Below, piece after piece: positions 30-44,552 of a stretch of DNA of 44,552 nt; positions within the stretch are counted from its first letter, which is position 1; each line of letters begins with the position of its first letter. Origin of the DNA: Elusimicrobia bacterium RIFOXYA2_FULL_39_19 (GTDB lineage: Bacteria; Elusimicrobiota; Endomicrobiia; CG1-02-37-114; XYA2-FULL-39-19); contig MGVC01000084.1 of the NCBI GenBank assembly GCA_001800285.1, positions 1-44,552 of the forward strand. Direction: 5' to 3'. A program made the position numbers and the translations under genes. A model generated the notes under the pieces. The model searched no databases. It was not told the origin of the DNA and was given only the letters and a program-made list of their open reading frames with translations.

Positions 30-875
30 TTAAGCTGACAAGGCGCTGAAATTGTTTTTGTAGCTGACTTCAAATTCATTTGGCGGAACATAGCCTAAAG
101 ATGAATGAAGCCGTTTTGCATTATATACTTGTTCAAGAAAATATGGCACCCGTTCTATAACATCATCTATCGTCTGATAATCGTTTAAGTACACTTCTTC
201 GTACTTAAAAGTCTTAAAGAAACTTTCTGCGGTTGCGTTATGGTACGGATTCCCTTTATCAGACATACTGCTCAGAATATTGTGTTCTTTCAAAATATTC
301 ACATATTCTTCTGAGGCATACTGGACGCCCTGGTCAGAATGATGAATACAGCCAGTCAATGGTTTTCGGTCTCTAAGCGCCATTTTAAGCGCTTCTGTTG
401 CTAAAGATGCGTCCAAAGACAGTGACAAGGCATAGCCTATCACTTTACGGGAAAATAAGTCAAGAATTGCCGACAGATACACAAAACCGTGGGCAAGGTG
501 AATATATGTTATATCTGCAACCCAAATTTGATTCGGCGCTGTAGGGGTTATCCCTATTATCAGGTTCGGATATCTTTGAAAATTGTGTTTTGAATTTGTT
601 GTTGGCCGGTACGCTCTTGGCTGTTTGCACTGGATGTCCAACTCAACCATAAGGCGCCCTATGCGCTTATGGTTCACCCGGTATCCTTCACGGTGCAACT
701 GTTTGGTTACGCGCCGTTCCCCGTAACCAGGGAATTCTTTGACTATTTCTTCTATTCGCTTTTTTAGTTTTGATTCTTCTGCTATTTTTTTGGCTGATTT
801 CTTTGATTTATAATAATATGTGCTCAGGGGAATATTCATTAGTTCGCACCCCCGGCTCGTAGTTTCAACAAACAA
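30..875 (-). CDS. IS3-family transposase OrfB (DDE catalytic domain)
   Basis: This is the transposase catalytic subunit, 281 residues when counted from a TTG codon. It has an N-terminal HTH_21-like region (PGYGERRVTKQLHREGY around residues 49-65) followed by an rve integrase core. The catalytic triad is visible as D121 (WVADITYIH), D181 (HHSDQGVQYAS) and E217 (NATAESFF). The D181-E217 spacing of 35 intervening residues fits the DD(35)E signature. The frame stays open upstream through FIKEHQLFVETT, typical of IS3 OrfB, so the active product is probably an OrfAB fusion made by -1 frameshifting rather than a protein starting at this TTG. No internal stop is seen, so the transposase may be functional. 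Confidence 0.92.
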   Translation of the reverse strand: MFVETTSRGCELMNIPLSTYYYKSKKSAKKIAEESKLKKRIEEIVKEFPGYGERRVTKQLHREGYRVNHKRIGRLMVELDIQCKQPRAYRPTTNSKHNFQRYPNLIIGITPTAPNQIWVADITYIHLAHGFVYLSAILDLFSRKVIGYALSLSLDASLATEALKMALRDRKPLTGCIHHSDQGVQYASEEYVNILKEHNILSSMSDKGNPYHNATAESFFKTFKYEEVYLNDYQTIDDVIERVPYFLEQVYNAKRLHSSLGYVPPNEFEVSYKNNFSALSA

Positions 876-1189
876 CTGGTGCTCTTTGATAAACTTTCTT
901 TTTTCTTTGCAAGTTCCCGTTTGTATTCTATCGTTTTTTTTAAAAACTCGATTTCCATCGCTTGCCGGCCCACCATCCGTTCAAGTTTCTCTATTTTATC
1001 ATGGAATCCGGCTTCGGTGGTAGGCTCATTGTTCAAACGGCCATGTTCATATGCTTCAATCCATTTTAACAGTAAACTATACGATATCCCATATTTCCGG
1101 GCTACTGCTGTTTTGCTCGTTTGCCCGCTTAGTGCTTCCGTTGCTGCTTCTTGCTTTTGTTCTTTACTGAATTTTCTGTATAAACCCAT
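839..1189 (-). CDS. IS3-family transposase OrfA (helix-turn-helix)
   Basis: This 116-residue protein starts MGLYRKFSKEQKQEAATEAL. It contains the Tnp_1/HTH_8-like fold of IS3 OrfA (SKTAVARKYGISYSLLLKWI, about residues 25-44), which recognises the element's ends. A leucine-rich coiled segment follows (KIEKLERMVGRQAMEIEFLKK), used for multimerisation in this family. It overlaps orfB by 37 bp, with orfB in the -1 frame. An A-rich run in the mRNA (complement of about 892-905, codons AAG AAA AAA GAA) is the likely slippage site, although it is not a textbook A-AAA-AAG heptamer in the zero frame. Confidence 0.9.
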   Translation of the reverse strand: MGLYRKFSKEQKQEAATEALSGQTSKTAVARKYGISYSLLLKWIEAYEHGRLNNEPTTEAGFHDKIEKLERMVGRQAMEIEFLKKTIEYKRELAKKKESLSKSTSCLLKLRAGGAN

Positions 1190-1283
1190 ACAAGAGCCTC
1201 CTTTTTTAAGGTCTCTTGTCTGCTATTATACTAATTTAGTATCCAGTTTTTGGGGTACAGTCCAAAGTATATCCATACTATTT

Positions 1284-2378
1284 ATGAGAAATTTAAGAAA
1301 GATGGAATATGATTGGAATGGAAACCAGTTACGCAAGGAAATGGGCAGTGGGCAGTCAGTGGTAACCAAATATTTTAATTACGAATATGATTTTGAAAAT
1401 CGTATGACGAAGGTCATTTTCCCGGACAACAGCTATGAAAAGTATTTATATGCTCCCAACGGAAAGCGGGTAGCGGTTCAAAAATGGAGAGCGGGCGCAA
1501 CAACGCCCGAAGAAACCACCTATTTTGTTTATGATGCCTTACAGTGCAATAATGTGTATGAATTTTCAACAAACACCAATTCAACAAGCTCAGGGCAGGG
1601 TTCTGTTTCAAGGTATGTCTATAACTGGCCGGGAAATGAGATGATAAGTAAAATTACTGCATATCCGCCTGATGGTGTTACATCGATTTCTTATTATCAT
1701 TATGACGGTATTGGAAGTGCAAGTGCGATTACGGATAGTGCGGGAACAGTTAATAATACATACAGGTACGACCCATTTGGAAACATAATTACCAGCACAG
1801 GGAAAAACGGCAGGTATTCATTTGTCGGCGCTTTTGGTGTAGAGAATGACGGAATGAGCTGTCTGTTACACATGGGTGCCCGGTATTATGATCCAACAAT
1901 AGGAAGGTTTATTCAAAGGGACCCGCTTCGTGGTTTTGTTTCAGATCCACTTTCACTGAACCGGTATATTTATTGTGGAAATAATCCGATGAATTTTATT
2001 GACCCAAAGGGGTTGTTCTGGTCTGACGATGATGACTCTATGGCTGGTTCAAGCCATGAATATGGCGAAGAAGAGAAAGTTGAAGCAAAGAGAAAAGTCC
2101 CCTCTAATAAAGTTAAAGTTACAATAATTCAGTTATGGTATGCCGATTACATTTTTGGAGATAACTATAAAGACCCTGGAATTCCGCCACCAGCAGATAT
2201 ACCGAATAATCCCAAGGAGACAATATCGTATATTTATATTCCTTTTGATTATGCACTAATCGATCAAATAGAAAGAAGATCAGTAATAAATAATTATTAT
2301 TTGGCATTTCAGGAAATATTGATTATACAACAAAAGAGGTTTTATTATGGTCCATCATCGCAAAAAAAATGTGAATAA
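1284..2378 (+). CDS. RHS/YD-repeat C-terminal fragment with variable tip (orphan cassette 1)
   Basis: This is the C-terminal part of an RHS protein. Recognisable homology to the other copies starts near 1307 (NGNQLRKEMGSGQS) and runs through the RHS core (YEYDFENRMTKVIFPDNSYE, GARYYDPTIGRFIQRDPLRG, NRYIYCGNNPMNFIDPKG). The core ends at PKG near 2015. About 120 residues of unique tip follow, beginning with an acidic linker (FWSDDDDSMAG) and containing PGIPPPADIPNNPKE. No toxin family is recognised in the tip. The 5' end is lost beside the IS element. ATG 1284 or 1302 could start translation, but no convincing Shine-Dalgarno site is seen, so this may be a silent cassette. The frame is open upstream into the IS, but that part is not RHS. 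The last 32 bp overlap the next gene. Confidence 0.8.
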   Translation: MRNLRKMEYDWNGNQLRKEMGSGQSVVTKYFNYEYDFENRMTKVIFPDNSYEKYLYAPNGKRVAVQKWRAGATTPEETTYFVYDALQCNNVYEFSTNTNSTSSGQGSVSRYVYNWPGNEMISKITAYPPDGVTSISYYHYDGIGSASAITDSAGTVNNTYRYDPFGNIITSTGKNGRYSFVGAFGVENDGMSCLLHMGARYYDPTIGRFIQRDPLRGFVSDPLSLNRYIYCGNNPMNFIDPKGLFWSDDDDSMAGSSHEYGEEEKVEAKRKVPSNKVKVTIIQLWYADYIFGDNYKDPGIPPPADIPNNPKETISYIYIPFDYALIDQIERRSVINNYYLAFQEILIIQQKRFYYGPSSQKKCE

Positions 2379-2871
2379 TATTGTTATCGGGCTTTTAGTA
2401 CCATTGTTGTTTTTCTTCTCTTGTGCTAAAACCAAAGATTCTATACCAGAGAAAACTGTAAATATTGATAAGGCTTTAAAAGAGAGAATTGTCCAATATT
2501 ATGAATTAGAAAAGAAAGGCGATTGGTCGCATACTTATAATTTTCGTATAACTCCTTTTAAAGAGGTTGTACGTTTTGATTATTATAAATCTCGTATGCA
2601 AAAGGATAGCAAGGGGTGGAAATTGGAAAGTTATAAGTTTGTAGATTGTAAACAACAAAATAATTTGGCTTATGTAAAAATAGCATTCATTGAAATGATT
2701 CCTCCTGATTATTTGAAAACAAATGATATTTTATCGAATCTGCTTACTCGTAAAATAAGAAAGATGAAATTTACAGAAGATTCAATTTGGGAAAAAATAA
2801 ATGGAGTTTGGTATACTCGAAGCTGTTGTTCAAGATTACATTTATCCTTGAACGAAGAATTTGGTGAATAA
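2347..2871 (+). CDS. Putative lipoprotein, candidate immunity protein for RHS tip 1
   Basis: This is a protein of 174 residues of unknown family. The N-terminus has basic residues, a hydrophobic stretch and a lipobox-like FFFSC (VIGLLVPLLFFFSCAK), predicting an envelope lipoprotein. The mature part is charged and aromatic (YYELEKKGDWSHTYNF), loosely like NTF2-type or DUF4878-like lipoproteins, but I do not assign a family. AGAGG at 2335-2339 gives good spacing to the ATG. The gene overlaps the end of RHS tip 1 by 32 bp, the same layout as the other RHS tip/small-gene pairs here, which is the only reason to propose immunity. The frame reopens directly after the stop (see 2872-3057). Confidence 0.6.
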   Translation: MVHHRKKNVNNIVIGLLVPLLFFFSCAKTKDSIPEKTVNIDKALKERIVQYYELEKKGDWSHTYNFRITPFKEVVRFDYYKSRMQKDSKGWKLESYKFVDCKQQNNLAYVKIAFIEMIPPDYLKTNDILSNLLTRKIRKMKFTEDSIWEKINGVWYTRSCCSRLHLSLNEEFGE

Positions 2872-3129: not shown

Positions 3130-3954
3130 ATGATTTCAAAAATAACAGCTTATCCACCTGATGGTGTTACATCGATTTCTTATTATCATTATGACGGTAT
3201 TGGAAGTGCAAGTGCAATTACTGATGCAAACGGGACAGTAACTAACACTTACAGGTATGACCCGTTTGGAAACATGATTACAAGTACTGGAAAATTAGGG
3301 CGTTATTCGTTTGTTGGCGCCTTTGGTGTAGAAAACGATGGCATGAGCGGTCTCTTTCACATGGGAGCTCGTTATTATGATCCAACAACAGGCCGTTTTA
3401 TCCAAAGAGACCCAATAAGGGGGTTTGTTTCAGATCCACTTTCACTGAACCGGTATATTTATTGCGGAAATAATCCGATGAATTTTATTGACCCGAAGGG
3501 GCTGACAGCAACAGCAGGAACTACAGATCCAGAAACGGGAGAAACGGTAATTACAAATACTGAAGCAGAAGATCAAGAAGGCAATAGACCGAAAGCAATA
3601 TTTAATGGATATTCTTTTATTTTCTTTTATCCAATTGCGAATGGATATATAGCAGTTTCAGGAAATGGAACGCATCAAGGAATACCTAGTGGGACTTGGG
3701 ATGCAACTAACTTACGAACAAGAACAAAAACTGGGATGGTAGATCTCACGGGATTGGGTTGGAGTGTAGATCTGAAACCGAATTTTAGCACAGATAGAGA
3801 TTTGATACGGATCCACCCTGACCAACCACCATATGGAACTGAAGGATGTATAGGAATAGAAGGAGATACGCGTTATTTATATAATGCGATACAAGGTTAT
3901 TTGAGCTTACAAACATCATTTACTGTACAGGTGACAAATGGGAAATGTAAATAG
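3130..3954 (+). CDS. RHS core fragment with L,D-transpeptidase-like toxin tip (orphan cassette 2)
   Basis: Residues 1-124 are RHS core, nearly identical to cassette 1 (DGVTSISYYHYDGIGSASA, ARYYDPTTGRFIQRDPIRG, NPMNFIDPKG). Residues 125-274 are a unique tip. It has a linker (TAGTTDPETGETV), a beta-rich stretch and then RIHPDQPPYGTEGCIGIEGD, with H229 and C240 in an H...GTEGCIGI arrangement. In YkuD-type L,D-transpeptidases and the Tlde1 toxins, a His and a Cys in HG...S.GC[IV] motifs are catalytic. I therefore propose a cell-wall-targeting peptidase/transpeptidase fold, by motif only. The N-terminal core is cut just before the first ATG, so this is a cassette rather than a complete RHS protein. 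It overlaps the next gene by 17 bp. Confidence 0.72.
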   Translation: MISKITAYPPDGVTSISYYHYDGIGSASAITDANGTVTNTYRYDPFGNMITSTGKLGRYSFVGAFGVENDGMSGLFHMGARYYDPTTGRFIQRDPIRGFVSDPLSLNRYIYCGNNPMNFIDPKGLTATAGTTDPETGETVITNTEAEDQEGNRPKAIFNGYSFIFFYPIANGYIAVSGNGTHQGIPSGTWDATNLRTRTKTGMVDLTGLGWSVDLKPNFSTDRDLIRIHPDQPPYGTEGCIGIEGDTRYLYNAIQGYLSLQTSFTVQVTNGKCK

Positions 3955-4583: not shown

Positions 4584-4901
4584 ATGAAATCTAAAACAGA
4601 AACGGTAAGTTTAAGAAGCGGAATTGGCGCGGTAAATCCTGAAAATATAACTACGGATTACCTGTATGATGGAAGTGGGAACCAGTTACGCAAGGAAATG
4701 GGCAGTGGGCAGTCAATAGTGACTAAATATTTAAATTACGAATATGATTTTGAGAACCGCATGACAAAAGTTATTTTCCCTGACAACAGCTATGAGAAAT
4801 ACCTTTATGCGCCCAATGGAAAGAGGGTTGCAGTTCAAAAGTGGTTGGCGAATGCTTCGCAACCGGAAGAAACTACATATTTTGTTTATGATGCGCTTTA
4901 A
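4584..4901 (+). CDS. Truncated RHS core fragment without tip (orphan cassette 3)
   Basis: The 105 residues match the middle of the RHS core (TTDYLYDGSGNQLRKEMGSG, YEYDFENRMTKVIFPDNSYE, APNGKRVAVQKW, EETTYFVYDAL). In every other copy, YDAL is followed by QCNNVYE. Here the Gln codon position is TAA and the next bases keep only a trace of homology (TTC AAT AAT). The core therefore breaks off before its PKG end and has no toxin tip. It is probably a non-functional remnant left by recombination. The HtrA-like gene begins 23 bp after its stop. Confidence 0.7.
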   Translation: MKSKTETVSLRSGIGAVNPENITTDYLYDGSGNQLRKEMGSGQSIVTKYLNYEYDFENRMTKVIFPDNSYEKYLYAPNGKRVAVQKWLANASQPEETTYFVYDAL

Positions 4902-4924
4902 TTCAATAATTTATGGAGGATTGT

Positions 4925-33034: not shown

Positions 33035-34462
33035 ATGTTCGGAAAAATGTTATTAAAGAAAATGAATCGTGTCGCTTTATTGTTAGTATTGCTACCCGTA
33101 CTGGTTTTTGCAGTTCCAACCCAGATAAATTTTCAGGGAATGTTAACAGACCCAAATACAGGTGATCCTCTCGGTGGCACCCCTCCGGGTACTCAATACG
33201 ATATGAAAATCAGTTTATGGGACCAATTATCCAGTGGAACTCAAAAATGGACTGAAACAAGAGATGGTACAAATGCTGTTTATGTGTCAGAAGGTTTGTT
33301 AAATGCGGTTTTAGGCCAGGTAACTGCATTAACGTCTGATGTTTTCAGCAATAACTCTGAATTGTACTTACAAATAGAAATCAGTGCCCATAGCGCAAAC
33401 ACTTATCAAACACTTTCACCAAGGCAAAAAGTTACAAGTGTTGGTTATGCTTTAGTTGCAGACAAGGCTGAACAAAATGTTTTAAAAACTGGTGATACAA
33501 TGACGGGAAAACTAAGTATACTGGCACCATTAGGACATGATGATTATGATTTAAATAGCAGATCGTCTGTATATGTTAGAAATGAATCACAAACAACTTA
33601 TGGAAATGGTTTATATATATTCAGTGCCCCAAGGTGGGGAGATGGAATAAGAATTAGCGCTGGGAGTTATGGAGTAAAAAGCACCGCTGTAGATTTTGGT
33701 TTATCTGGAGAAGCAACAGGTGTTACTTTACCGAGTTATGGTTTATATGGATCTAGTTTATATGGGTATGGTCTTCGTTGCAGTGGAGGAAATGCGGGTC
33801 TTTTTGCCCAAGGTAATTTTTCGAACTCTTGGGCTGGTTGGTTTGAAGGAAAAATTAATGTAACTGGTGATATCTGGGCTAATGATGTTCATGTTCCTGG
33901 AGGAGATATTGCGGAAAATTACGAGTCAAAGGAAAAATTAGAACCAGGAGATGTAGTAATTGCAGACAAAAATAATCCGATGCTTATAAAAAGATGTAGT
34001 ACAGAATACGATACAAAAGTATTGGGTGTAATTTCTACAAACCCGGGACTGGTTATTGATTCTTACTCTTCCGATTATGAAAAACCAACTTTTACAAAGA
34101 AATCAGAAAAAACCTATGAATCTGCAAAGTCAGAAGAATTACTGAAATACAAAGAAAAAAAGGACGTAACCGAAGAAAATAATATTTCAAAGCCCGAAGA
34201 TTTACCAGAACTTCCAAAAACAGATGCAATGGCAAAGAAAAATGGAAATCTTTTAGCAATTGTCGGAAAAGTTCCTACAAAAGTGACTACTGAAAATGGG
34301 CCAATAGGAATCGGAGACTTACTTACCACATCTTCAAAACCCGGTTATGCTATGAAAGCAACAATAGACAGTTTTGATAAAGTGGGAACAATTATCGGCA
34401 AAGCTCTTGAACCTCTTGAAAAAGGTGAAGGAAAAATTATGGTTTTGATAAACCTGCAATAA
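33035..34462 (+). CDS. Exported tail-fibre-like protein preceding the RHS gene
   Basis: A 475-residue protein with a signal peptide (LLLVLLPVLVFA). The N-terminal domain (residues about 25-145: TQINFQGMLTDPNTGDPLGG, WTETRDGTNAVYVSEGLL, LSPRQKVTSVGYALVADKAE) is of the kind found before tail-fibre or collagen-like stalks. The middle carries TGDTMTGKLSI and a glycine/tyrosine repeat. The C-terminal part (GGDIAENYESKEKLEPGDVV, LAIVGKVPTKV, GPIGIGDLLTTSSKPGYAMK) resembles the end domain of phage-tail/S74-neighbour structural proteins. No catalytic residue is claimed. It ends 1 bp before the RHS start codon, so the two are translationally coupled and likely act together at the cell surface. GGGGGAAAG lies upstream of the ATG. 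Confidence 0.72.
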   Translation: MFGKMLLKKMNRVALLLVLLPVLVFAVPTQINFQGMLTDPNTGDPLGGTPPGTQYDMKISLWDQLSSGTQKWTETRDGTNAVYVSEGLLNAVLGQVTALTSDVFSNNSELYLQIEISAHSANTYQTLSPRQKVTSVGYALVADKAEQNVLKTGDTMTGKLSILAPLGHDDYDLNSRSSVYVRNESQTTYGNGLYIFSAPRWGDGIRISAGSYGVKSTAVDFGLSGEATGVTLPSYGLYGSSLYGYGLRCSGGNAGLFAQGNFSNSWAGWFEGKINVTGDIWANDVHVPGGDIAENYESKEKLEPGDVVIADKNNPMLIKRCSTEYDTKVLGVISTNPGLVIDSYSSDYEKPTFTKKSEKTYESAKSEELLKYKEKKDVTEENNISKPEDLPELPKTDAMAKKNGNLLAIVGKVPTKVTTENGPIGIGDLLTTSSKPGYAMKATIDSFDKVGTIIGKALEPLEKGEGKIMVLINLQ

Positions 34463-34463
34463 A

Positions 34464-37400
34464 ATGCTGAAAAAAATAATTCTGCTTTTAATGGTGTTTA
34501 TTTTAGTAATTGCAACTCCCGTAACATATTTTTCTATGTGGAGTGATGACTATGCAGTTTCAAGAATAACAAACAACAACGAAAGCGCAAAAAAACAATC
34601 CACAAATTACAACTTAAACACAAATTTTGGTGAATCATTCATTGGTTTAACACAAAGCCAATCCTATAAAATAACAATAGGATTTTTTGGAGCATCAAAA
34701 GCCAAATACCTGCCCAACGGGTTACCTTCGCCTGAGCCAACACTTATTGAAGCATCAGCACAACCGCCATCAGTAAATGCCGGTGAAACCTCAAATATTA
34801 CTGCATTGATAATAGATGCACGTTATACGGATCAAAGGCCTGTCCCAAATGTTCAGGTGAATTTTCAGGTAACAGCTGGCGGTGGTTCTTTAGAAGTAAT
34901 AAACGGTACTTCTGATGAAAATGGTTACGCCAGAGCAAGATTGACTACGGGGCCTAATACTGCAGAAAACAAAATAAAAATAACTGTTCAGGGACAAACC
35001 CTTATAGAAAAGACCGTAATAGTAAACGGTTATAAAGCCGCAATTACAGGCAGCATTACTGGAACCCCAACAGTCGGAAGTTCTTTTATAAACTCGCAAT
35101 ACAGCCCCGCGTTGCCTGCCCCAGGAAGTTTATCAGGATATAAAAGTTTAAGTGCTATTCTTAAGGAAAAAGAACTTAGAGAAAAAGAAATACAAGAACA
35201 GCAAGAAAGAGAGAAAAAGCAGGAAGAATTCAGGCAGTATATGTTAAGCAGGAAAATAGAGCAATTTATTGGATTTCAAAAAAGTATTAATGAAACAATA
35301 ACAGAAATGAACAAATTGGCAGGAAAAATAGAAAAGAGAAGAGAAAAATATGATATGACAGTAGGCTTAATAGGTGATTATCAATCAGCAGGCGGTTTAA
35401 CAAAAAGCCAGTATAAAACAGCTTTAAATAAAGTAGGAAGAGCGGAATCCTTAGCTGCTGAAATCAATACCATGGTTGAACAATATAATGAGTACTCAGA
35501 AAAACTTAACAAATTGACTGCACATGCCCAATATCTTTGCGATGAAGTTGAAGAAATTGTCTGTGATTTTAATCCTGTAAACACTTTTAATGGAAACCTG
35601 ATTTACACGGTAAGAGATTTGTTTTTGCCTTCCAGGGGAATGTCTTTACAATTATCCAGGACTTATAATAGTTTCTCAGCCGCAGACAGCCCGTTCGGCT
35701 ATGGTTGGACTTTTTCTTATGATATGTACTTGAAGTTCATTGATGCGGACAATATAGTTTTTCATAGAGGTGATGGGGCAGAAATAAATTACTTGAAACA
35801 GCAAGATGGTACATTTAAGCCGGCAATAGGGAATTATTCAAACTTAATAGAAAATACTGATAATAGTTATACATTGACAGAACAATCAGGCATGAAGTTT
35901 AAATTCAGCGTTTCAGGCAAGTTAACCCAACTAGTTGACCGCAATAACAATACAATAACACTCACCTACACTGACGGCAAACTCACAAAAATAACTGATA
36001 CAACCGGCAGAGAAACTTTTTTCCAATATAACTTACAGGGCAGAATTTCAAAACTCATAGACCCGGCAAGCAGGGAAACAAATTATACTTACAATGAAAA
36101 TGGTGACTTAACTCAGGTAACCGGCCCGGGAGATTTTGCGGCAACTTATGCGTATGACAGCAACCACCTGATGATAGAACGCAATGACCCAAATTGTGAC
36201 ATAAAAAAATATGTTAAAAGAAAATATGAGTATGATGAAAATAACAGGGTAATTACTGAAATAGATGGCCTGAATAATAGGTTTACTATTCAATATGACC
36301 TGGCAAACAGAATAACCATTTTTACCGATGCTAAAGGCAATCAGACACAATTCCAATATGACGCTCTATGCAGATTGATTTCGCAGACAAATGCCGATAA
36401 CAATACAAAAACATATTCCTGGGATTCAAATAATAACAATACAAGTGTTACGGATTATAAAGGAGAAATAACCCAGTATACTTATGATATATATGGCAAT
36501 GAAGCCAGCGCTACAGACCCGTTGGGGAAAGTCCGGTCCGGAACCTGGGATATTTATGGAAATCCATTAACGGTTACAGACCCGAAGGGGAACACAACTA
36601 CATTTACTTATGACAATAATGGAAATCTCATTGAAATTGAAGATGCCTTGGATTCAACAATTCAATACAGTTATAATTCTTATGGGCAAAAAACATCCGT
36701 TACTGACAAAAATAACCACACCAGTACCTATGAATATGATCAATACGGTAACAATAACATAATAACTGACCCTCAAGAAGGGTCAACAAATCTTACCTAT
36801 GATGTTATTGGAAGATTAACGGGTGTTACGGATCCACTCAACAGAACCATGTATTATAATTACGATAATAGAAATCGCATAACAAAAATCATAAATTCCG
36901 ATGCAACGGAAAAGAGTTTTACTTATGATATAAATAACAATATTTTAAGCATTACTGATGAAAATAGCAATGTAACTTACTTTGCCTATGATGCCAATAA
37001 CCTGCTTTTAAACATTGAAGACCCTTTGCATAATAATACCGTTTATACTTATGATGAACTTGGCAGGAAAATAACTGTAAAAGACTCAAAAAACAATACT
37101 GCCAGCTTTACTTATGATAAACTTGACCGCATAACCACAGTAACCGATGCGTTAAACAACCAGACATCATTTGCTTATGATAAAATGGGAAATCAATTAT
37201 CTGTTACAGATGCAAGAGGAAAAACCACTTCTTTTGAATATGATGCAATAGGAAAAATGTTAACAAAAACAGATGCAAATGGTAAAAATGTTCTGTACGA
37301 ATATGATTCGGCAGGCTGTCTGACCGGACTTACGGACCAGAATAACCATAAAACGACTTATGAATATAACGCCCTTAATAGAATGATAAAAATCATAGAT

Positions 37401-40340
37401 CCGCTTAACGGCCAAACGATAAATAATTATGATAATGCCGGCAACATAACCTCAATTACAGATGCAAATGGAAATGCCACGTTATACGAATACGATTCTT
37501 TAAACAGACTGGTTAAAATTAAAGACGCGCTTGATAATGAAACCCATTTTACTTATGATGCTGTAGGTAATAAATTGTCAGTAGTAGACGCAAATAATAG
37601 AACCGTGCTATATGAATATAATTCAAGAAACAGGTTAGTTGAAGTGACTGATACCAAAGGCGGTATATCAACTTACGAATATGATAACGCAGGCAATAGA
37701 ACTGCTTTTACTGATGCATTAAATCATGAAACAAATTACCAATATGATGACTTAAACCGGTTAACTAAAACAATTGATGCGTTAAGCAACCAGACGGATT
37801 TTACTTATGACACTGTAGGGAACCTTATTTCAAAAACAGATGCTAACAACAATGTCACTCAATTTGAATATGATGTTTTAAACAGACTGACAAAAACAAT
37901 CAATGCCAAAGGCAAAACAACCCAATTATTGTATGATGCCGTAGGAAATAAAACAGCTGTAATTGATGCTAAAAGTAACCTGACTGCCTTTGAATACGAT
38001 AATTTGAACCGTTTAACAAAAATTACAGACCCTCTGAATAATCAAACCATTTATGCGTATGATTTTGCAGGCAATCGCACAACAATAATGGATGCAAACA
38101 GCAAAACAACAAATTATGAATATGATGCATTAAACAGACTGACAAAAGTAACTGATGCAAATAGTAAATCAACTTCCTATGAATACGATGCTGTGGGCAA
38201 CCGCTTAAGTCTTACAGATGCTAAAGGCAATAAAACCACCTACGAATACAATGCATTAAATAAAATAGTACAAGAAGAAGACCCTCTAAATAAAACTGTC
38301 CAGTACCAGTATAACGCTGTTGGTAATCTTATTGCAAAAATTGATGGAAATGATAACACTATAAGCTACGCTTACGATAATTTTGACCAGCTTACCCAGC
38401 AAACTTATCCAGACCAAGACGTGTCAAATTATACCTATAATGCTGTAGGCAATAGGACCCGCCAGTATAATCAAAATGCTGATGTAAGCTATGGTTATGA
38501 TTCCTTAAATAGGTTGATAACAGTTACCCAAAGTTTTCCCGGCACCAATTTAGGCCCAAAAGTTGTCCAGCATGCTTATGATGCTGTGGGTAATCGCACA
38601 TCGGTTACTTATCCGGATAATAAGGTAACTACATTTGCGCATAATGAAATTAACCAGACAACACAAATAAATGATGCAGATTCAGGAATAATAAGTTATG
38701 AGTACGATGATGTGGGAAATAAAACAAAAGCAACCTATTCAAATGGTATAGAATCTGATTATGTTTATAATGTTAATAACTGGCTTTTTAATATTGAACA
38801 CAAAAACACGCTAACCGGCGTGATGGTTTCTTCGTTTGGGTACACTTATGATAATGTGGGCAACAAAACCAACACAGTTGACGGTTACGGCAAAACGGAC
38901 TATATTTATGATAACCTTTATGAGCTTACAAAGGTTACATTTCCAGAAAAAACCTTCCAGGAATATTATTATGACCCTGTAGGTAACAGGACAAAATTTG
39001 TTGATGAACAGGGCGTAATAAATTATCAGTATAACAATGCAAATGAGCTGACTCAATATCTGGTTAATAGAAACAGCACGCAGGGCAATCAGGGCGGATT
39101 GTATGACCCCGGGATTGTTACGGTATCTACCGGAGCGGTGATTAATTTAAAGACAGGCATAAGCGCAGTAACCCTAAAAAATGTAACTGTTGATTATGAG
39201 TATGACGGAAATGGCAGCCAGGTGCAAAAAACAGTTAAAAATGAAGGGTCAACAATGAATAAAGAATATAACTATCAATACGATTATGAGAACAGGCTTG
39301 TGAAAGTAATTTTTCCTGACAATAGTTATGAAAAGTATTTGTATGCGCCCAATGGAAAGCGGGTGGCGGTACAGAAGTGGCAAGCAAATGCTTCGCAACC
39401 CGAAGAAACAACCTATTTTGTTTATGACGCATTACAGTGCAATAATGTTTATGAGATCAGCGGGAGTTCTGTTTCAAGGTATGTTTATTTATGGCCCGGC
39501 AATGAAATGCTTTCAAAGGTTGTTACTACTTCCGACTTACCACTTATGACTTACGGTTTTTATTACCATTATGATTCATTAGGTTCAGTGAGTGCGATAA
39601 CAAACTCAAGCGGAACTGTGACCAACACATATCGGTACGACCCGTTCGGTAATGTAATGAACAGCACAGGGAAAAACGGCAGATATTCATTCGTAGGTGC
39701 TTTTGGCGTAGAAAATGACGGTATGAGTGGCTTATTTCACATGGGTGCCCGCTATTACGACCCAACAATAGGAAGGTTTATTCAGAGAGATTCTGTAAGA
39801 GGGTTCATTGATGACCCTCTTACCCTGAACAGATATATTTACTGTGGCAATAACCCGATAAACTATATAGATCCGAAAGGATATGGGAAATTGGATTTAG
39901 ATGAAAATACCAATACTTATGGACATGGTGGAACAGGACAAGAATACATTGAAAAATATGGAAATTATGATTCAAATGATATTAATAACAACAATTCAGA
40001 GAGATCGTCTGGTAATTATAATTCGCCCTTGTTGTTCCCTTTAATTGGTGCAATTAGTCCATTGAAAATTACAATAAAAATTGTTAATTTATTACTTAAC
40101 CCAATTCCATTTACAGTAGATGATTTTATCTTTTATTTTCTAAAAGAAGCACCAGAATTAAATCCCATACAAGATAATCCAACAAATCCTGAAAATCCAA
40201 TGTATGGAACGTGGGAATTAGATATAAATAAATTACCAAAACAAGATCCAATACTTTTTATACCCGGAGATGTGCAAATACGTGGAATCAAAAATTCAAA
40301 AAATCAAAGTATAAATAATTATGATTGTAAAAATAAGTGA
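34464..40340 (+). CDS. Full-length RHS/YD-repeat polymorphic toxin-like protein
   Basis: A 1958-residue exported protein. In order: a signal segment (IILLLMVFILVIATPVTYF); a Big-1/invasin-like Ig domain (about 85-190: PPSVNAGETSNITALIIDA, VNFQVTAGGGSLEVINGTSD); a charged coiled coil (about 225-370: KEKELREKEIQEQQERE); a DUF6531-like entry domain (about 375-450: FNGNLIYTVRDLFLPSRGMS); and roughly 50 YD repeats to about residue 1560, built on YEYDALNRLTKVTDANS-like units. The RHS core ends at DPKG near residue 1804, and a unique tip of about 154 residues follows (SPLLFPLIGAISPLKIT, NPTNPENPMYGTWELDINKL). Such proteins form a shell that encloses and releases the C-terminal toxin. The tip's activity is not recognised. 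The next gene overlaps by 20 bp. Confidence 0.9.
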   Translation: MLKKIILLLMVFILVIATPVTYFSMWSDDYAVSRITNNNESAKKQSTNYNLNTNFGESFIGLTQSQSYKITIGFFGASKAKYLPNGLPSPEPTLIEASAQPPSVNAGETSNITALIIDARYTDQRPVPNVQVNFQVTAGGGSLEVINGTSDENGYARARLTTGPNTAENKIKITVQGQTLIEKTVIVNGYKAAITGSITGTPTVGSSFINSQYSPALPAPGSLSGYKSLSAILKEKELREKEIQEQQEREKKQEEFRQYMLSRKIEQFIGFQKSINETITEMNKLAGKIEKRREKYDMTVGLIGDYQSAGGLTKSQYKTALNKVGRAESLAAEINTMVEQYNEYSEKLNKLTAHAQYLCDEVEEIVCDFNPVNTFNGNLIYTVRDLFLPSRGMSLQLSRTYNSFSAADSPFGYGWTFSYDMYLKFIDADNIVFHRGDGAEINYLKQQDGTFKPAIGNYSNLIENTDNSYTLTEQSGMKFKFSVSGKLTQLVDRNNNTITLTYTDGKLTKITDTTGRETFFQYNLQGRISKLIDPASRETNYTYNENGDLTQVTGPGDFAATYAYDSNHLMIERNDPNCDIKKYVKRKYEYDENNRVITEIDGLNNRFTIQYDLANRITIFTDAKGNQTQFQYDALCRLISQTNADNNTKTYSWDSNNNNTSVTDYKGEITQYTYDIYGNEASATDPLGKVRSGTWDIYGNPLTVTDPKGNTTTFTYDNNGNLIEIEDALDSTIQYSYNSYGQKTSVTDKNNHTSTYEYDQYGNNNIITDPQEGSTNLTYDVIGRLTGVTDPLNRTMYYNYDNRNRITKIINSDATEKSFTYDINNNILSITDENSNVTYFAYDANNLLLNIEDPLHNNTVYTYDELGRKITVKDSKNNTASFTYDKLDRITTVTDALNNQTSFAYDKMGNQLSVTDARGKTTSFEYDAIGKMLTKTDANGKNVLYEYDSAGCLTGLTDQNNHKTTYEYNALNRMIKIIDPLNGQTINNYDNAGNITSITDANGNATLYEYDSLNRLVKIKDALDNETHFTYDAVGNKLSVVDANNRTVLYEYNSRNRLVEVTDTKGGISTYEYDNAGNRTAFTDALNHETNYQYDDLNRLTKTIDALSNQTDFTYDTVGNLISKTDANNNVTQFEYDVLNRLTKTINAKGKTTQLLYDAVGNKTAVIDAKSNLTAFEYDNLNRLTKITDPLNNQTIYAYDFAGNRTTIMDANSKTTNYEYDALNRLTKVTDANSKSTSYEYDAVGNRLSLTDAKGNKTTYEYNALNKIVQEEDPLNKTVQYQYNAVGNLIAKIDGNDNTISYAYDNFDQLTQQTYPDQDVSNYTYNAVGNRTRQYNQNADVSYGYDSLNRLITVTQSFPGTNLGPKVVQHAYDAVGNRTSVTYPDNKVTTFAHNEINQTTQINDADSGIISYEYDDVGNKTKATYSNGIESDYVYNVNNWLFNIEHKNTLTGVMVSSFGYTYDNVGNKTNTVDGYGKTDYIYDNLYELTKVTFPEKTFQEYYYDPVGNRTKFVDEQGVINYQYNNANELTQYLVNRNSTQGNQGGLYDPGIVTVSTGAVINLKTGISAVTLKNVTVDYEYDGNGSQVQKTVKNEGSTMNKEYNYQYDYENRLVKVIFPDNSYEKYLYAPNGKRVAVQKWQANASQPEETTYFVYDALQCNNVYEISGSSVSRYVYLWPGNEMLSKVVTTSDLPLMTYGFYYHYDSLGSVSAITNSSGTVTNTYRYDPFGNVMNSTGKNGRYSFVGAFGVENDGMSGLFHMGARYYDPTIGRFIQRDSVRGFIDDPLTLNRYIYCGNNPINYIDPKGYGKLDLDENTNTYGHGGTGQEYIEKYGNYDSNDINNNNSERSSGNYNSPLLFPLIGAISPLKITIKIVNLLLNPIPFTVDDFIFYFLKEAPELNPIQDNPTNPENPMYGTWELDINKLPKQDPILFIPGDVQIRGIKNSKNQSINNYDCKNK
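38785..39886 (+). repeat. RHS core repeat block, master copy
   Basis: The 3' part of the full-length RHS gene that is re-used in the two downstream cassettes (40667-41620 and 42667-43790). Stretches such as 39480-39570 are identical or nearly so in all three. Confidence 0.85.
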
Positions 40341-40593
40341 CAAAAATAAATTTAAAAAAAACGTAACTTTCATATCAATAGTTATTGTTATGAATACTAT
40401 TTTCAATGGATTGATAAATTTAAAACATTATTATGGTATATTTATATTGGTTTTAATAGTACCAATCAGTATGTTTATAACTCAATTTTTATTAAAAAAG
40501 CTAAAATTTCCTGTAATAGTCTTGTTAATTGTTATTTTTTACATGATGTTTTTTTTAGGTAAATATTTTTTAAATGTATTTTTAACCACGTAA
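40321..40593 (+). CDS. Small membrane protein, candidate immunity protein of the full-length RHS tip
   Basis: A 90-residue protein, mostly hydrophobic, with about three transmembrane helices (VTFISIVIVMNTIFNGLI, YGIFILVLIVPISMFITQFL, FPVIVLLIVIFYMMFFLGKY) and a basic N-terminus (KISDKNKFKKN). No family is recognised. Its ATG lies 20 bp inside the RHS tip in another frame, the usual layout of toxin-immunity pairs. If it is the immunity protein, the tip should act in or through the inner membrane. No clear Shine-Dalgarno site is seen, so translation may depend on the RHS ribosome. Confidence 0.6.
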   Translation: MIVKISDKNKFKKNVTFISIVIVMNTIFNGLINLKHYYGIFILVLIVPISMFITQFLLKKLKFPVIVLLIVIFYMMFFLGKYFLNVFLTT

Positions 40594-40654
40594 AAGCAAC
40601 AATTGTATTGATTGACATTGTGATAATAGAAAACAGAGATCAAGAAGTTAATTT

Positions 40655-41968
40655 ATGGCAATAAAAATAGCGTTTCCAGAAAAAACCTTCCAGGAGTATT
40701 ATTATGACCCTGCAGGTAACCGGACAAAATTTGTTGATGAACAGGGAATTATAAATTACCAATATAACAGCGCAAATGAGCTGACTCAATATCTGGTTAA
40801 CAGAAATAACACTCAGGGCAATCAGGGTGGGGTCTATGACCCCGGGTTTGCTACGGTCTCTACAGGCGCGGTGATTAATTTAAAGACAGGCATAAGCGCG
40901 GTAAGCCCAAAAAATGTAACTGTTGATTATGAGTATGACGGAAATGGTAGCCAGCTGCAAAAGACAGTAAATAGTGAAGGGTCAATAGTGAATAAAGAAT
41001 ATAACTACCAGTACGATTATGAAAATAGGCTTGTGAAAGTAATTTTTCCTGACAATAGTTATGAAAAATACCTTTATGCCCCAAATGGTAAGCGGGTGGC
41101 GGTACAGAAGTGGAGAGCCAGCGCAATCGAACCGGAAGAAACTACATATTTTGTGTATGACGCGCTTCAGTGCAATAATGTTTATGAGATCAGCGGGAGT
41201 TCTGTTTCAAGATATATTTATTTATGGCCCGGCAATGAGATGCTTTCAAAGGTTGTTACTACTTCCGACTTACCACTTATGACTTACGGTTTTTATTACC
41301 ATTATGATTCGTTAGGTTCAGTAAGTGCAATAACAGATAGCAGCGGCGTAGTAACCAACACCTACCGGTACGACCCATTTGGTAATGTAATGAACAGCAC
41401 GGGAAAATCAGGGCGTTATAGCTTTGTCGGTGCTTTTGGTGTTGAGAACGATGGAATGAGCGGTCTTTTCCACATGGGTGCAAGGTATTATGACCCAACA
41501 ATAGGAAGGTTTATTCAGAGAGATTCTGTAAGAGGATTTATAGATGATCCTCTTACATTAAACAGATATGTTTATTGCGGGAACAATCCGATAAACTACA
41601 TAGACCCGAAAGGTTTCAGTAAATTAGATTTAGATGAAAATGCATATACTTATGGACATGGTAATACAGGACAAGAATACATTGAAAAATCCGGGAGTTT
41701 TAATAAAGATGATTTTAATGATTTTACTACAACAAGAATGGATTTTAGTATTAGTGAATCAATGAAAAGTGTAGGGGAACAGTTGAAATATCTTGGTGAA
41801 GGTATTGCATTAGGGGGTGTAGCCATAGGATTGATAACAAGGATTCCAGTAATAGGAATAGCTTCTGCGGCAGCCGGCGGGGGTATTATAGCTGTTGGGA
41901 TTGCTTTAGAATTAGGTGGTGCTTATTATGGCAATTTTGAAGAAGATAAAAAATCATATTGTAAGTAA
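40655..41968 (+). CDS. Orphan RHS core cassette with hydrophobic tip (cassette 4)
   Basis: A 437-residue frame. From FPEKTFQEYYYDPAGNRTKF (nt 40667) to DPKG (about residue 317) it repeats the core of the full-length RHS gene. The tip first matches that gene for about 25 more residues (SKLDLDENAYTYGHGNTGQE) and then becomes unique. It includes a strongly hydrophobic, Gly/Ala-rich region (IALGGVAIGLITRIPVIGIA, then SAAAGGGIIAVGIALELGGA) that could insert into membranes like a pore-former hairpin. ATG 40655 lies only 4 codons before the homology begins and there is no signal peptide, so the cassette is probably a silent donor for recombination rather than a working secreted protein. Confidence 0.75.
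   Translation: MAIKIAFPEKTFQEYYYDPAGNRTKFVDEQGIINYQYNSANELTQYLVNRNNTQGNQGGVYDPGFATVSTGAVINLKTGISAVSPKNVTVDYEYDGNGSQLQKTVNSEGSIVNKEYNYQYDYENRLVKVIFPDNSYEKYLYAPNGKRVAVQKWRASAIEPEETTYFVYDALQCNNVYEISGSSVSRYIYLWPGNEMLSKVVTTSDLPLMTYGFYYHYDSLGSVSAITDSSGVVTNTYRYDPFGNVMNSTGKSGRYSFVGAFGVENDGMSGLFHMGARYYDPTIGRFIQRDSVRGFIDDPLTLNRYVYCGNNPINYIDPKGFSKLDLDENAYTYGHGNTGQEYIEKSGSFNKDDFNDFTTTRMDFSISESMKSVGEQLKYLGEGIALGGVAIGLITRIPVIGIASAAAGGGIIAVGIALELGGAYYGNFEEDKKSYCK
40667..41620 (+). repeat. RHS core repeat block, second copy
   Basis: Homologous to about 38940-39886 of the full-length gene. Identical runs alternate with silent differences. Confidence 0.85.
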
Positions 41969-42002
41969 TCACAATAATTAAAATAACAAAATGGAGTGTT
42001 TT

Positions 42003-42368
42003 ATGTCAATATTAAAATATTTTCATGTTTTTATGTGGTCATTCATTTTATTCGCAATGACAATAGATTATTTACATGCCATAAAAATCAAATCAAAATC
42101 ACGTTATTATTATAAGGATTATTACATGAATTTATTTTTTACTTTGTTATCATTACAATTGTTATATATTGAGAGGTTCATTACAAATAGCATTGTCAGT
42201 TATGTATTAATAATTATAGGTTTAATTATTGGTGTCATATTTGTAATTGTGTCAAGTAAAGTGCGTTTTAAAAAAACAATCTTTAATTATCTTTTCTTTA
42301 GTATAACAATTTTCCTATTATTTCCGTGCCAAATTGTTTTATTAGCTATCAAAATAATTAAACCTTAG
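42003..42368 (+). CDS. Polytopic membrane protein, candidate immunity protein for cassette 4
   Basis: A 121-residue protein with about four transmembrane helices (FHVFMWSFILFAMTIDYLHA, NLFFTLLSLQLLYIERFI, VSYVLIIIGLIIGVIFVIVS, NYLFFSITIFLLFPCQIVLL). ATG 42003 is chosen over 41991 because GGAG (41993-41996) lies at proper spacing before it. It follows the hydrophobic tip of cassette 4 by 34 bp. In colicin-type systems, immunity to pore-formers is provided by small polytopic inner-membrane proteins of this kind. The pairing is inferred from order and topology; no family was recognised. Confidence 0.6.
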   Translation: MSILKYFHVFMWSFILFAMTIDYLHAIKIKSKSRYYYKDYYMNLFFTLLSLQLLYIERFITNSIVSYVLIIIGLIIGVIFVIVSSKVRFKKTIFNYLFFSITIFLLFPCQIVLLAIKIIKP

Positions 42369-42476
42369 ATGTTTTGTATTGTTGTCTTATAATGGAATAT
42401 TAATAATTAAACTTATGAGCTATCAGGTTTGATAGTTAATAAAGGTTGAAAAACCCAAAACACTAAGTAAAGAATA

Positions 42477-42629
42477 ATGAAAAAGTATATGATACATAAA
42501 ACTTATATTAGAGTTTTAGTTATTGCAATTATAATTATCAATAATCAGTTTCTTTTTTCTGCTGAATGGAAAAGGGATACTGTTGGTTCGGGCAACGGTA
42601 AGATGCAACACTTAGCTGTTGGTGAATGA
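42477..42629 (+). pseudogene. Remnant of an exported FG-GAP/VCBS-like protein gene
   Basis: A 50-codon frame: a signal peptide (IRVLVIAIIIINNQFLFSAE) and then WKRDTVGSGNGKMQHLAVGE, which looks like the first blade of an FG-GAP/VCBS-type propeller (usual pattern GSG..GM...AVGDGRNDG). After the stop, the same frame continues RNDGV, stop, KAYD, stop, so homology runs on past the stop codons: a decayed gene. It sits between immunity candidate 4 and RHS cassette 5 and may be what was there before the cassette inserted. Confidence 0.45.
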
Positions 42630-44139
42630 AGAAACGATGGGGTATAAAAGGCTTATGATTGAGACTTATAATCAAAATAATATAATGTTTAATATTGAAC
42701 ACAAAAACACGCTAACCGGTGTGATAGTTTCTTCGTTTGGGTACACTTATGATAAGGTGGGCTACAAAACCAACACAGTTGACGGTTACGGCAAAACGGA
42801 CTATATTTATGATAACCTTTATGAGCTTACAAGGGTTACATTTCCAGAAAAAACCTTCCAGGAGTATTATTATGACCCTGTAGGTAACAGGACAAAATTT
42901 GTTGATGAACAGGGAGTTATAAATTATCAGTATAACAGCGCAAACGAGCTGACCGAATATATGGTTAACAGAAACAGTACACAGGACAATCAGGGCGGGG
43001 TGTATGACCCCGGGTTTGTTACGTTTTCTACAGGCGCGGTGATTAATTTAAAGACAGGCATAAGCGCAGTAACCCCAAAAAATGTAACTGTTGATTATGA
43101 GCATGACGGAAACGGCAGTCAGGCGCTCAAGACTGTGAGTAATGAAGGGTCAATAGTGAATAAAGAATATAATTACCAATACGATTATGAGAACAGGCTT
43201 GTGAAAGTAATTTTCCCTGACAATAGTTATGAAAAGTATTTGTATGCGCCTAATGGAAAAAGGGTTGCGGTCCAAAAGTGGAGAGCCAGCGCAAATGAAC
43301 CCGAAGAAACTACATATTTTGTGTATGACGCGCTTCAGTGCAATAATGTGTATGAATTCAGCGCAACTACAACGACAGTTAATCGGTATGTTTATTTATG
43401 GCCCGGCAATGAAATGCTTTCAAAGGTTGTTACTACTTCCGACTTACCACTTATGACTTACGGTTTTTATTACCATTATGATAGTCTTGGAAGTGTAAGT
43501 GCAATTACAGATAGCAGCGGCGTAGTAACCAACACATACAGATACGACCCATTCGGTAATGTAATGAACAGCACAGGGAAAAACGGCAGATATTCCTTTG
43601 TGGGTGCCTTTGGTGTGGAGAACGATGGAATGAGCGGGCTGTCTCACATGGGCGCCCGCTATTACGACCCAACAATAGGAAGGTTTATTCAGAGAGATTC
43701 TGTAAGAGGGTTTATTGATGATCCTTTGACACTAAACAGATATATTTATTGTGGAAATAACCCGATAAACTTTATTGACCCGAAAGGATTATTTTTCAAA
43801 GAATTATGGCAGGGAATAAAGGATGTTACTGGATGGACTAAAATTGAGCAAAAAATCCAAAGAACAGAAAAAAGAGCAGCTGAATTATCTAAGGAATCAG
43901 AAAAAATATTCTCTAGTGAACAAGACGACGCAAAACATATTTGGGTATCAAAGAAATTAACAATAGAAGAAGGGCCTGTAATAACTTTATTGGGTGGATT
44001 GTATAAAGAATTTAAAGATGCTACTGATGGTAATAAGTATACACATCCAGAACTTAAAGATATTATTAATGATTTAGAAGGTATAAGACAAGGGAAGCTG
44101 TATTTAGAGGAACAGAATAAATGCAAATCTCAAAAGTAA
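42619..44139 (+). CDS. Orphan RHS core cassette with toxin-like tip (cassette 5)
   Basis: A 506-residue frame. RHS homology starts near 42667 (YNQNNIMFNIEHKNTLTG) and runs to DPKG at about residue 387, with the same core motifs as the full-length gene (ARYYDPTIGRFIQRDSVRGF, NRYIYCGNNPINFIDPKG). The 119-residue tip is charged and helical: LFFKELWQGIKDVTGWTKIE, SSEQDDAKHIWVSKKLTIEE, NDLEGIRQGKLYLEEQ. The pattern DDAKH...W...G...E...D...NDLEGIRQG faintly recalls DUF6973-type toxin domains ([ND]AxRHxxW ... NNxxG); this is a weak, by-eye resemblance. ATG 42619 is only a nominal start; 42685 is an alternative. It overlaps the next gene by 19 bp. Confidence 0.75.
   Translation: MVNEETMGYKRLMIETYNQNNIMFNIEHKNTLTGVIVSSFGYTYDKVGYKTNTVDGYGKTDYIYDNLYELTRVTFPEKTFQEYYYDPVGNRTKFVDEQGVINYQYNSANELTEYMVNRNSTQDNQGGVYDPGFVTFSTGAVINLKTGISAVTPKNVTVDYEHDGNGSQALKTVSNEGSIVNKEYNYQYDYENRLVKVIFPDNSYEKYLYAPNGKRVAVQKWRASANEPEETTYFVYDALQCNNVYEFSATTTTVNRYVYLWPGNEMLSKVVTTSDLPLMTYGFYYHYDSLGSVSAITDSSGVVTNTYRYDPFGNVMNSTGKNGRYSFVGAFGVENDGMSGLSHMGARYYDPTIGRFIQRDSVRGFIDDPLTLNRYIYCGNNPINFIDPKGLFFKELWQGIKDVTGWTKIEQKIQRTEKRAAELSKESEKIFSSEQDDAKHIWVSKKLTIEEGPVITLLGGLYKEFKDATDGNKYTHPELKDIINDLEGIRQGKLYLEEQNKCKSQK
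42667..43790 (+). repeat. RHS core repeat block, third copy
   Basis: Homologous to about 38766-39886. Runs such as 43390-43470 are essentially identical to the other two copies. Confidence 0.85.
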
Positions 44140-44552
44140 TATCATCAATCATAATTCGTACAATTATAATGGTATTTATTTTTTTAATGCCATTGACCGT
44201 AATTATAATAACAGACCAATTTACAAGCTATTTAATTGAAACATTATATTTTCCCGATTGGTTTTCTAATAGATATTTTGTTTTTTTTGATTATTTAGTT
44301 CTTAGCATAGTTGTACTATCTGTTAATATTAAATTAAGAGGTAAAAGAATCAAAAAGATTGTTCTTTGGAGCGGTGTTTTTATTTTGTTCATAAATAATT
44401 ATATTGGTGAACAAGTTTTTAAGTCCTGGAAAGAGGAAGAAAGAAAGTATATTTCAGGAATAGAAATTGGGATAACTGAAGAAAAAGTTGTTGAAAAGTT
44501 AGGAAACCCTTTTAGGATGTATTATTCTTCGTCAGCCCCTGTTGATTATTAT
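44121..44552 (+). CDS. Membrane-anchored protein with BamE/SmpA-like motif, candidate immunity protein for cassette 5 (runs off the window)
   Basis: At least 144 residues; the gene continues past the window edge. It has three hydrophobic segments (IIMVFIFLMPLTVIIIT, YFVFFDYLVLSIVVLSVNIK, KIVLWSGVFILFINNYI). A soluble part with GIEIGITEEKVVEKLGNPFR follows, the G[MI]T..EV...LG.P pattern of the SmpA/OmlA (BamE-like) fold. AGAGG upstream lies within the RHS tip, and the ATG overlaps that tip by 19 bp, so expression is probably coupled. Role as immunity protein is inferred from position. Confidence 0.62.
   Translation, partial: MQISKVISSIIIRTIIMVFIFLMPLTVIIITDQFTSYLIETLYFPDWFSNRYFVFFDYLVLSIVVLSVNIKLRGKRIKKIVLWSGVFILFINNYIGEQVFKSWKEEERKYISGIEIGITEEKVVEKLGNPFRMYYSSSAPVDYY

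What the first reader, a model, noticed from the sequence alone, without database searches (positions are those of the whole stretch)
33035..44552. RHS polymorphic-toxin array: one full-length gene, two spare tips, each with its own small membrane protein
The full-length RHS gene is followed by two partial copies of its 3' core, each ending at DPKG and each carrying a different tip. After or overlapping every tip is a small gene (40321, 42003, 44121) predicted to encode a membrane protein. Three unrelated tips each paired with a membrane-located partner suggest a set of envelope-active toxins in a candidate-phylum bacterium, with spare cassettes ready to recombine onto the master gene.
Basis: partly seen in the sequence, partly recalled or inferred. 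Interest (0 to 1): 0.72.

Follow-up and report, generated by a model that had tools for sequence, protein, structure and literature searches.

The report
RHS toxin array with envelope immunity partners
This bacterium carries a large secreted toxin gene followed by spare toxin ends, each with its own membrane or exported protector gene, a known kind of bacterial weapon; here all the pairs point to attack on the cell envelope, and the toxin ends share an unexplained cysteine close to their last residue.

Summary
A 1,958-aa RHS gene (34464-40340) is followed by two core copies (about 87% DNA identity to it) with different tips. Each tip is followed or overlapped by a small membrane-protein gene. 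One of those tips is weakly L,D-transpeptidase-like (Tlde1). All five window partners, plus four in sister arrays, are transmembrane, lipoprotein or signal-peptide proteins. The best evidence for toxin/immunity pairing is a paralogous cassette on contig C71: core, tip start and partner end are conserved, while the tip C-terminus and partner N-terminus diverge together (dN/dS about 0.75-0.83 against 0.11 in the core). Excess identical runs show gene conversion among core copies. No T6SS sheath gene was found; the master gene has a Sec-like signal and follows a fibre-like gene. New and unexplained: 9 of 9 tips on this core family end with a Cys within the last 8 residues; phylum-wide, 29 of 57 short-tip clusters do (4.4 expected). 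Architecture and logic match known RHS displaced-tip arrays. Toxicity, immunity and actual tip swapping remain inferred.

The parts
33035..34462 (+). Fibre-like exported protein, 475 aa, ending directly before the RHS gene
   Evidence: Weak Peptidase_G2 (E 0.0029) and Bdello_MAT_N (E 8.5e-5) hits, both below curated cut-off; similar gene upstream of RHS genes in G024
34464..40340 (+). Master RHS gene: Sec-like signal, Ig-like stretch, DUF6531, RHS repeats, Rhs_assc_core, tip
39882..40340 (+). Tip 1 (152 aa), hydrophobic stretch, ends ..NNYDCKNK
   Evidence: no family match
40321..40593 (+). Partner 1, 90-aa multi-pass membrane protein, overlaps tip 1 by 20 nt
40655..41614 (+). Partial core copy 2, ends IDPKG
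41615..41968 (+). Tip 2 (117 aa): shared 34-aa linker, then Gly-rich hydrophobic hairpin, ends ..KKSYCK
42003..42368 (+). Partner 2, 121-aa multi-pass membrane protein (ATG at 42003 preceded by GGAG)
42660..43788 (+). Partial core copy 3, ends IDPKG
43789..44139 (+). Tip 3 (116 aa), predicted all-helical at low confidence, ends ..NKCKSQK; paralogue on contig C71
44121..44552 (+). Partner 3 (at least 144 aa, cut by contig end): membrane N-terminal part, soluble C-terminal part
1281..2012 (+). Second array: partial core (subtype 2), interrupted upstream by IS3-type element
2013..2378 (+). Tip A (121 aa), ends ..SSQKKCE
2347..2871 (+). Partner A, 174-aa lipoprotein-like (..LLFFFSC)
3130..3501 (+). 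Partial core (subtype 2)
3502..3954 (+). Tip B (150 aa), Tlde1-like: ..IHPDQPPYGTEGCI.., ends ..NGKCK
   Evidence: PF10908 at E 0.2, below cut-off; motif compared with PMC9638812
3938..4567 (+). Partner B, 209-aa signal-peptide protein
4584..4901 (+). Core remnant without tip
30..1189 (-). IS3-type transposase (rve and HTH_Tnp_1 ORFs) inside the second array

Best explanation
Two RHS polymorphic-toxin arrays with displaced tips. The master protein is exported by Sec (inferred from its signal-like N-terminus). It should fold into an RHS cocoon holding its C-terminal tip, and autocleave at the DPKG boundary, as known for RHS proteins. The tip would act on the envelope of neighbouring cells: tip 2, and perhaps tip 1, by inserting into membrane; tip B on peptidoglycan; tip 3 and tip A by unknown means. 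Each small gene encodes the immunity protein, sited in membrane or periplasm because that is where the toxin acts and because the producer's own toxin crosses its envelope. Homologous core copies allow tip/partner units to be exchanged by recombination and gene conversion. Shown: anatomy, envelope-type partners, tip/partner co-divergence, conversion tracts. Inferred: export, toxicity, immunity, swapping onto the master gene.
For: RHS domains over cut-off and core copies all ending at DPKG. Partners membrane or exported in 9 of 9 pairs of this core family, in 58 of 83 tip clusters of the phylum, against 16 of 51 control RHS ends and 6 of 17 ordinary window genes. Tip 3/partner 3 against the C71 paralogue: core dN/dS 0.11, tip residues 1-70 dS 0.02, tip C-terminus and partner N-terminus at 50% and 41% identity with dN/dS 0.75-0.83, partner C-terminus dS 0.07. 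Identical runs beyond codon-position shuffles: 98 nt master/copy 3, P 0.0002; 71 nt, P 0.003; A/B 59 nt, P 0.0004. A similar three-cassette array in another family of the phylum (G105) has two DUF6973 tips (E 6e-10 and 6e-8) and TM partners. No VipB/TssC match in the genome.
Against: No tip in the window matches a toxin family over its cut-off. Tip B lacks one catalytic His of Tlde1 (Glu there). Both structure models were of low confidence and the one fold search found nothing. Membrane calls rest on Kyte-Doolittle hydropathy. Core copies at 87% identity have not been recently exchanged over their full length.
Confidence: 0.78

Rival explanations
1. Displaced-tip graveyard: only the master pair is functional; downstream cassettes are silent relics of earlier displacement with no role as a reservoir.
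For: One core remnant has no tip (4584-4901) and one array is broken by an IS3-type element; no swapped tips seen among held relatives.
Against: Tip and partner frames are intact in all five pairs (partner 3 as far as the contig runs); partner frames overlap tip ends in four of five; the C71 paralogue shows fast interface divergence rather than decay.
Confidence: 0.25
2. Tips are ordinary structural or adhesive ends of a surface protein and the small membrane proteins are anchors or chaperones.
For: Many RHS/YD proteins are surface proteins (general knowledge); no toxin domain over cut-off in the window's tips; control RHS ends in Chloroflexota often lack partner-like genes.
Against: A different partner for every tip, co-divergence with its tip, Tlde1-like and DUF6973 tips in the same core family.
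Confidence: 0.12
3. Toxins aimed at eukaryotic or otherwise distant cells, with incidental neighbouring genes.
For: RHS cocoons also serve such toxins (general knowledge); no direct evidence here.
Against: One partner per tip implies a need for self-protection; tip B looks peptidoglycan-directed.
Confidence: 0.05

Closest known systems
Enterobacterial rhs loci with dissociated tips (Jackson 2009, PMC2935791)
   Same: Full-length gene followed by partial core plus tip fragments, core boundary DPxG, different tips on one core clade
   Different: There the core regions within a locus are described as identical; here they are 87% identical with conversion tracts. Partners here are all envelope proteins
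Salmonella rhs main/orphan module (Koskiniemi 2014, PMC3967940)
   Same: Main gene plus downstream orphan tip with its own immunity gene; evidence of recombination onto the main gene given there
   Different: Homology there 522 bp at 95%; no swap shown here, no T6SS sheath gene found here, different tips
Polymorphic toxin systems with standalone cassettes (Zhang 2012, PMC3482391)
   Same: Modular C-terminal toxins with adjacent immunity genes; pore-forming and LD-peptidase toxins listed
   Different: That survey reports one immunity family as the only lipoprotein in its collection; envelope partners dominate here
Tlde1 L,D-transpeptidase effectors (PMC9638812)
   Same: Tip B has His-x7-Thr-x-Gly-Cys-Ile and an exported partner
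   Different: Pfam E 0.2, below cut-off; second catalytic His is Glu; carried by an RHS core rather than as T6SS cargo

Membership tests
RHS polymorphic toxin | RHS/YD repeats and Rhs_assc_core ending at DPxG | tested here: met
RHS polymorphic toxin | Variable tips on a conserved core, with displaced copies | tested here: met
RHS polymorphic toxin | Adjacent cognate immunity gene | tested here: inconclusive
   Adjacency and co-divergence met; protection not testable
RHS polymorphic toxin | Tip is toxic | not testable with these tools
   Needs an expression assay
T6SS-delivered Rhs effector | T6SS machinery in the genome, PAAR/VgrG context | tested here: not met
   No VipB match (genome 97.8% complete); no PAAR match in the master protein; Sec-like N-terminus
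Tlde1 (tip B) | PF10908 match over cut-off | tested here: not met
   E 0.2, 12.5 bits against 30.1
Tlde1 (tip B) | Catalytic His, His, Cys | tested here: not met
   Two of three present, from the sequence
DUF6973 (tip 3) | Profile similarity to DUF6973 tips | tested here: inconclusive
   No Pfam hit; hhalign to the G105 DUF6973 pair probability 0.7%, E 0.077, over the QDxxxH stretch
Bdellovibrio mosaic adhesive trimer (33035-34462) | NF053851 over cut-off | tested here: not met
   22.4 bits against 60

The most novel reading that the evidence does not exclude
In this phylum, short RHS tips carry a conserved near-terminal cysteine (the only non-catalytic Cys in the tips of this core family) that serves a common step, such as a disulfide or thioester link to the cocoon, to a carrier or to the target envelope. 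It would be carried by many unrelated toxin domains, making it a previously undescribed C-terminal handling signal of RHS toxins.
Probability: 0.25. Interest if true: 0.72.

Novelty: new variant of a known kind. Interest (0 to 1): 0.5.

Why it matters
It extends displaced-tip RHS arrays to a phylum where this genome has no T6SS sheath gene and immunity partners are almost all in the envelope. It gives several testable toxin/immunity pairs without known domains. The C71 mosaic offers a natural map of the tip/partner interface. The near-terminal cysteine, about sixfold over expectation across tips without detectable similarity, is a specific feature with no current explanation.

Tried and rejected
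Structure prediction of tip B (single sequence, pLDDT 34) and tip 3 (pLDDT 63) was uninformative; the PDB fold search with tip 3 found nothing. Tip B in 341 genomes of the phylum, and tips B and 2 in plasmids: no homologues outside this genome. The genome-contig scan gave one distant Chloroflexi locus, so the organism could not be named. I considered that the C-terminal Cys is a by-product of partner start codons read in the tip's frame (..AATGC..): true for tip 3 and its C71 paralogue only; in the window's other tips the Cys codon is not part of the partner's start codon. The idea that C-terminal Cys tracks exported partners was not supported (Fisher P 0.56). The Cys is not exclusive to this phylum: 7 of 25 short clusters in a Chloroflexota control (3.0 expected, P 0.024).

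Full report
Observation. The window is one whole contig, C84, of a 3.09-Mb genome in 86 contigs, 97.8% complete. The described array is real: master RHS gene 34464-40340, two partial core copies, three tips and three small membrane-protein genes. Core copies are 86-87% identical to the master in DNA and all end at IDPKG. Tips 1 and 2 share about 34 residues after DPKG before diverging. Partner 2 most likely starts at 42003.

The contig's first 4.9 kb holds a second array of the same core family: tip A with a lipoprotein-like partner, tip B with a signal-peptide partner, a core remnant, and an IS3-type element in its first cassette. Contig C71 ends in a paralogue of cassette 3, and C84 and C71 stop within 4 bases of the same point of a repeated sequence, so partner 3 is cut by assembly. 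C78 begins with an RHS core fragment of the second array's subtype. The exported protein with a YPNP C-terminal domain downstream of the second array (6360-9590) has a relative next to the G105 array too (40% and 51% identity in two blocks), which suggests an old locus.

Pairing. Across the C84/C71 cassettes, core dN/dS is 0.11 at dS 0.84; tip residues 1-70 have dS 0.02; tip residues 71-116 and partner residues 1-93 are 50% and 41% identical with dN/dS 0.75 and 0.83; partner residues 94 on have dS 0.07. A divergent block spanning the tip/partner junction, bordered by near-identical sequence, is what exchange of a matched toxin-immunity interface would leave. Identical runs in core copies exceed codon-position-preserving shuffles (98 nt, P 0.0002; 71 nt, P 0.003; 69 nt, P 0.005; A/B 59 nt, P 0.0004), so conversion between copies has probably occurred.

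Relatives. The same core family occurs in G105 and G111 (one genus of another family in the phylum) as tandem cassettes, three in G105, with identical tips where both are held; two tips are DUF6973, and all three partners have TM segments. Other genera of the phylum carry RHS arrays with other cores.

Envelope. All nine partners of this core family (five here, one on C71, three in G105) are TM, lipoprotein-like or signal-peptide proteins. In the phylum 58 of 83 tip clusters have a partner with a stretch of mean hydropathy 1.6 or more, against 16 of 51 Chloroflexota RHS ends (P 1.6e-5) and 6 of 17 ordinary window genes. Limits: hydropathy only, partners chosen by a mechanical rule, and the control phylum has a different envelope and base composition. 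Tip 2 has a Gly-rich hydrophobic hairpin, as expected of a membrane-inserting toxin. Tip B has a weak Tlde1 match (E 0.2) and His-x7-Thr-Glu-Gly-Cys-Ile; the second catalytic His described for Tlde1a (PMC9638812) is Glu.

Delivery. The master protein has a Sec-like N-terminus, and no VipB-type T6SS sheath gene was found. A fibre-like exported gene ends directly upstream. A similar gene also lies directly upstream of two RHS genes in G024 and of an RHS-like ORF on C17 of this genome. Its match to the Bdellovibrio MAT family (PMC10769870) is below cut-off, so a targeting role is only a suggestion.

C-terminal cysteine. All tips on this core family (9 of 9) have a Cys within their last 8 residues; the other core types first examined did not. 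In the wider survey, 29 of 57 clusters of tips shorter than 190 aa have it (4.4 expected from Cys content, naive P 8e-18); 23 of 51 without this core family; 1 of 26 long-tip clusters. Chloroflexota: 7 of 25 (3.0 expected). Clusters are not fully independent, so the P value is indicative. It is not explained by partner start codons except for tip 3 and its paralogue, nor by partner location. Its role is unknown; a covalent link to cocoon, carrier or target is the idea I would test first. One literature search found no description of it.

Comparison. The arrangement fits the displaced-tip model of Jackson 2009 (PMC2935791), the main/orphan system with evidence of recombination in Salmonella (PMC3967940), and the standalone-cassette logic of Zhang 2012 (PMC3482391). 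It is an RHS polymorphic-toxin array by architecture; it is not a T6SS Rhs effector by the tests run. What differs is the envelope-only partner set, diverged and converted core copies, the fibre-like neighbour and the terminal Cys.

Noticed in passing
ends of tips 1, 2, 3, A, B; L016, L061, L100, L145 and others: Near-terminal Cys in tips without detectable similarity; 29 of 57 short-tip clusters in the phylum, weaker in Chloroflexota.
   Followed up: partly
33035-34462; L063, L064, L246: Fibre-like exported protein directly upstream of RHS genes in two genomes of different families.
   Followed up: partly
6360-9590 and L061 4342-7458: Exported protein with YPNP C-terminal domain beside the RHS array in two distant genomes.
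   Followed up: partly
4913-6316: Trypsin-like PDZ protease gene starting directly after the core remnant of the second array.
   Followed up: no
42477-42629: Short ORF with a signal peptide just ahead of core copy 3, in another frame; possibly the start of a broken secreted gene.
   Followed up: no
L016 12677-13690: Transposase-like gene (looks REP-associated tyrosine type) shortly upstream of the C71 cassette.
   Followed up: no
L021 53-742: A different RHS type in the same genome has a tip that looks like an M23 peptidase (by eye only).
   Followed up: no
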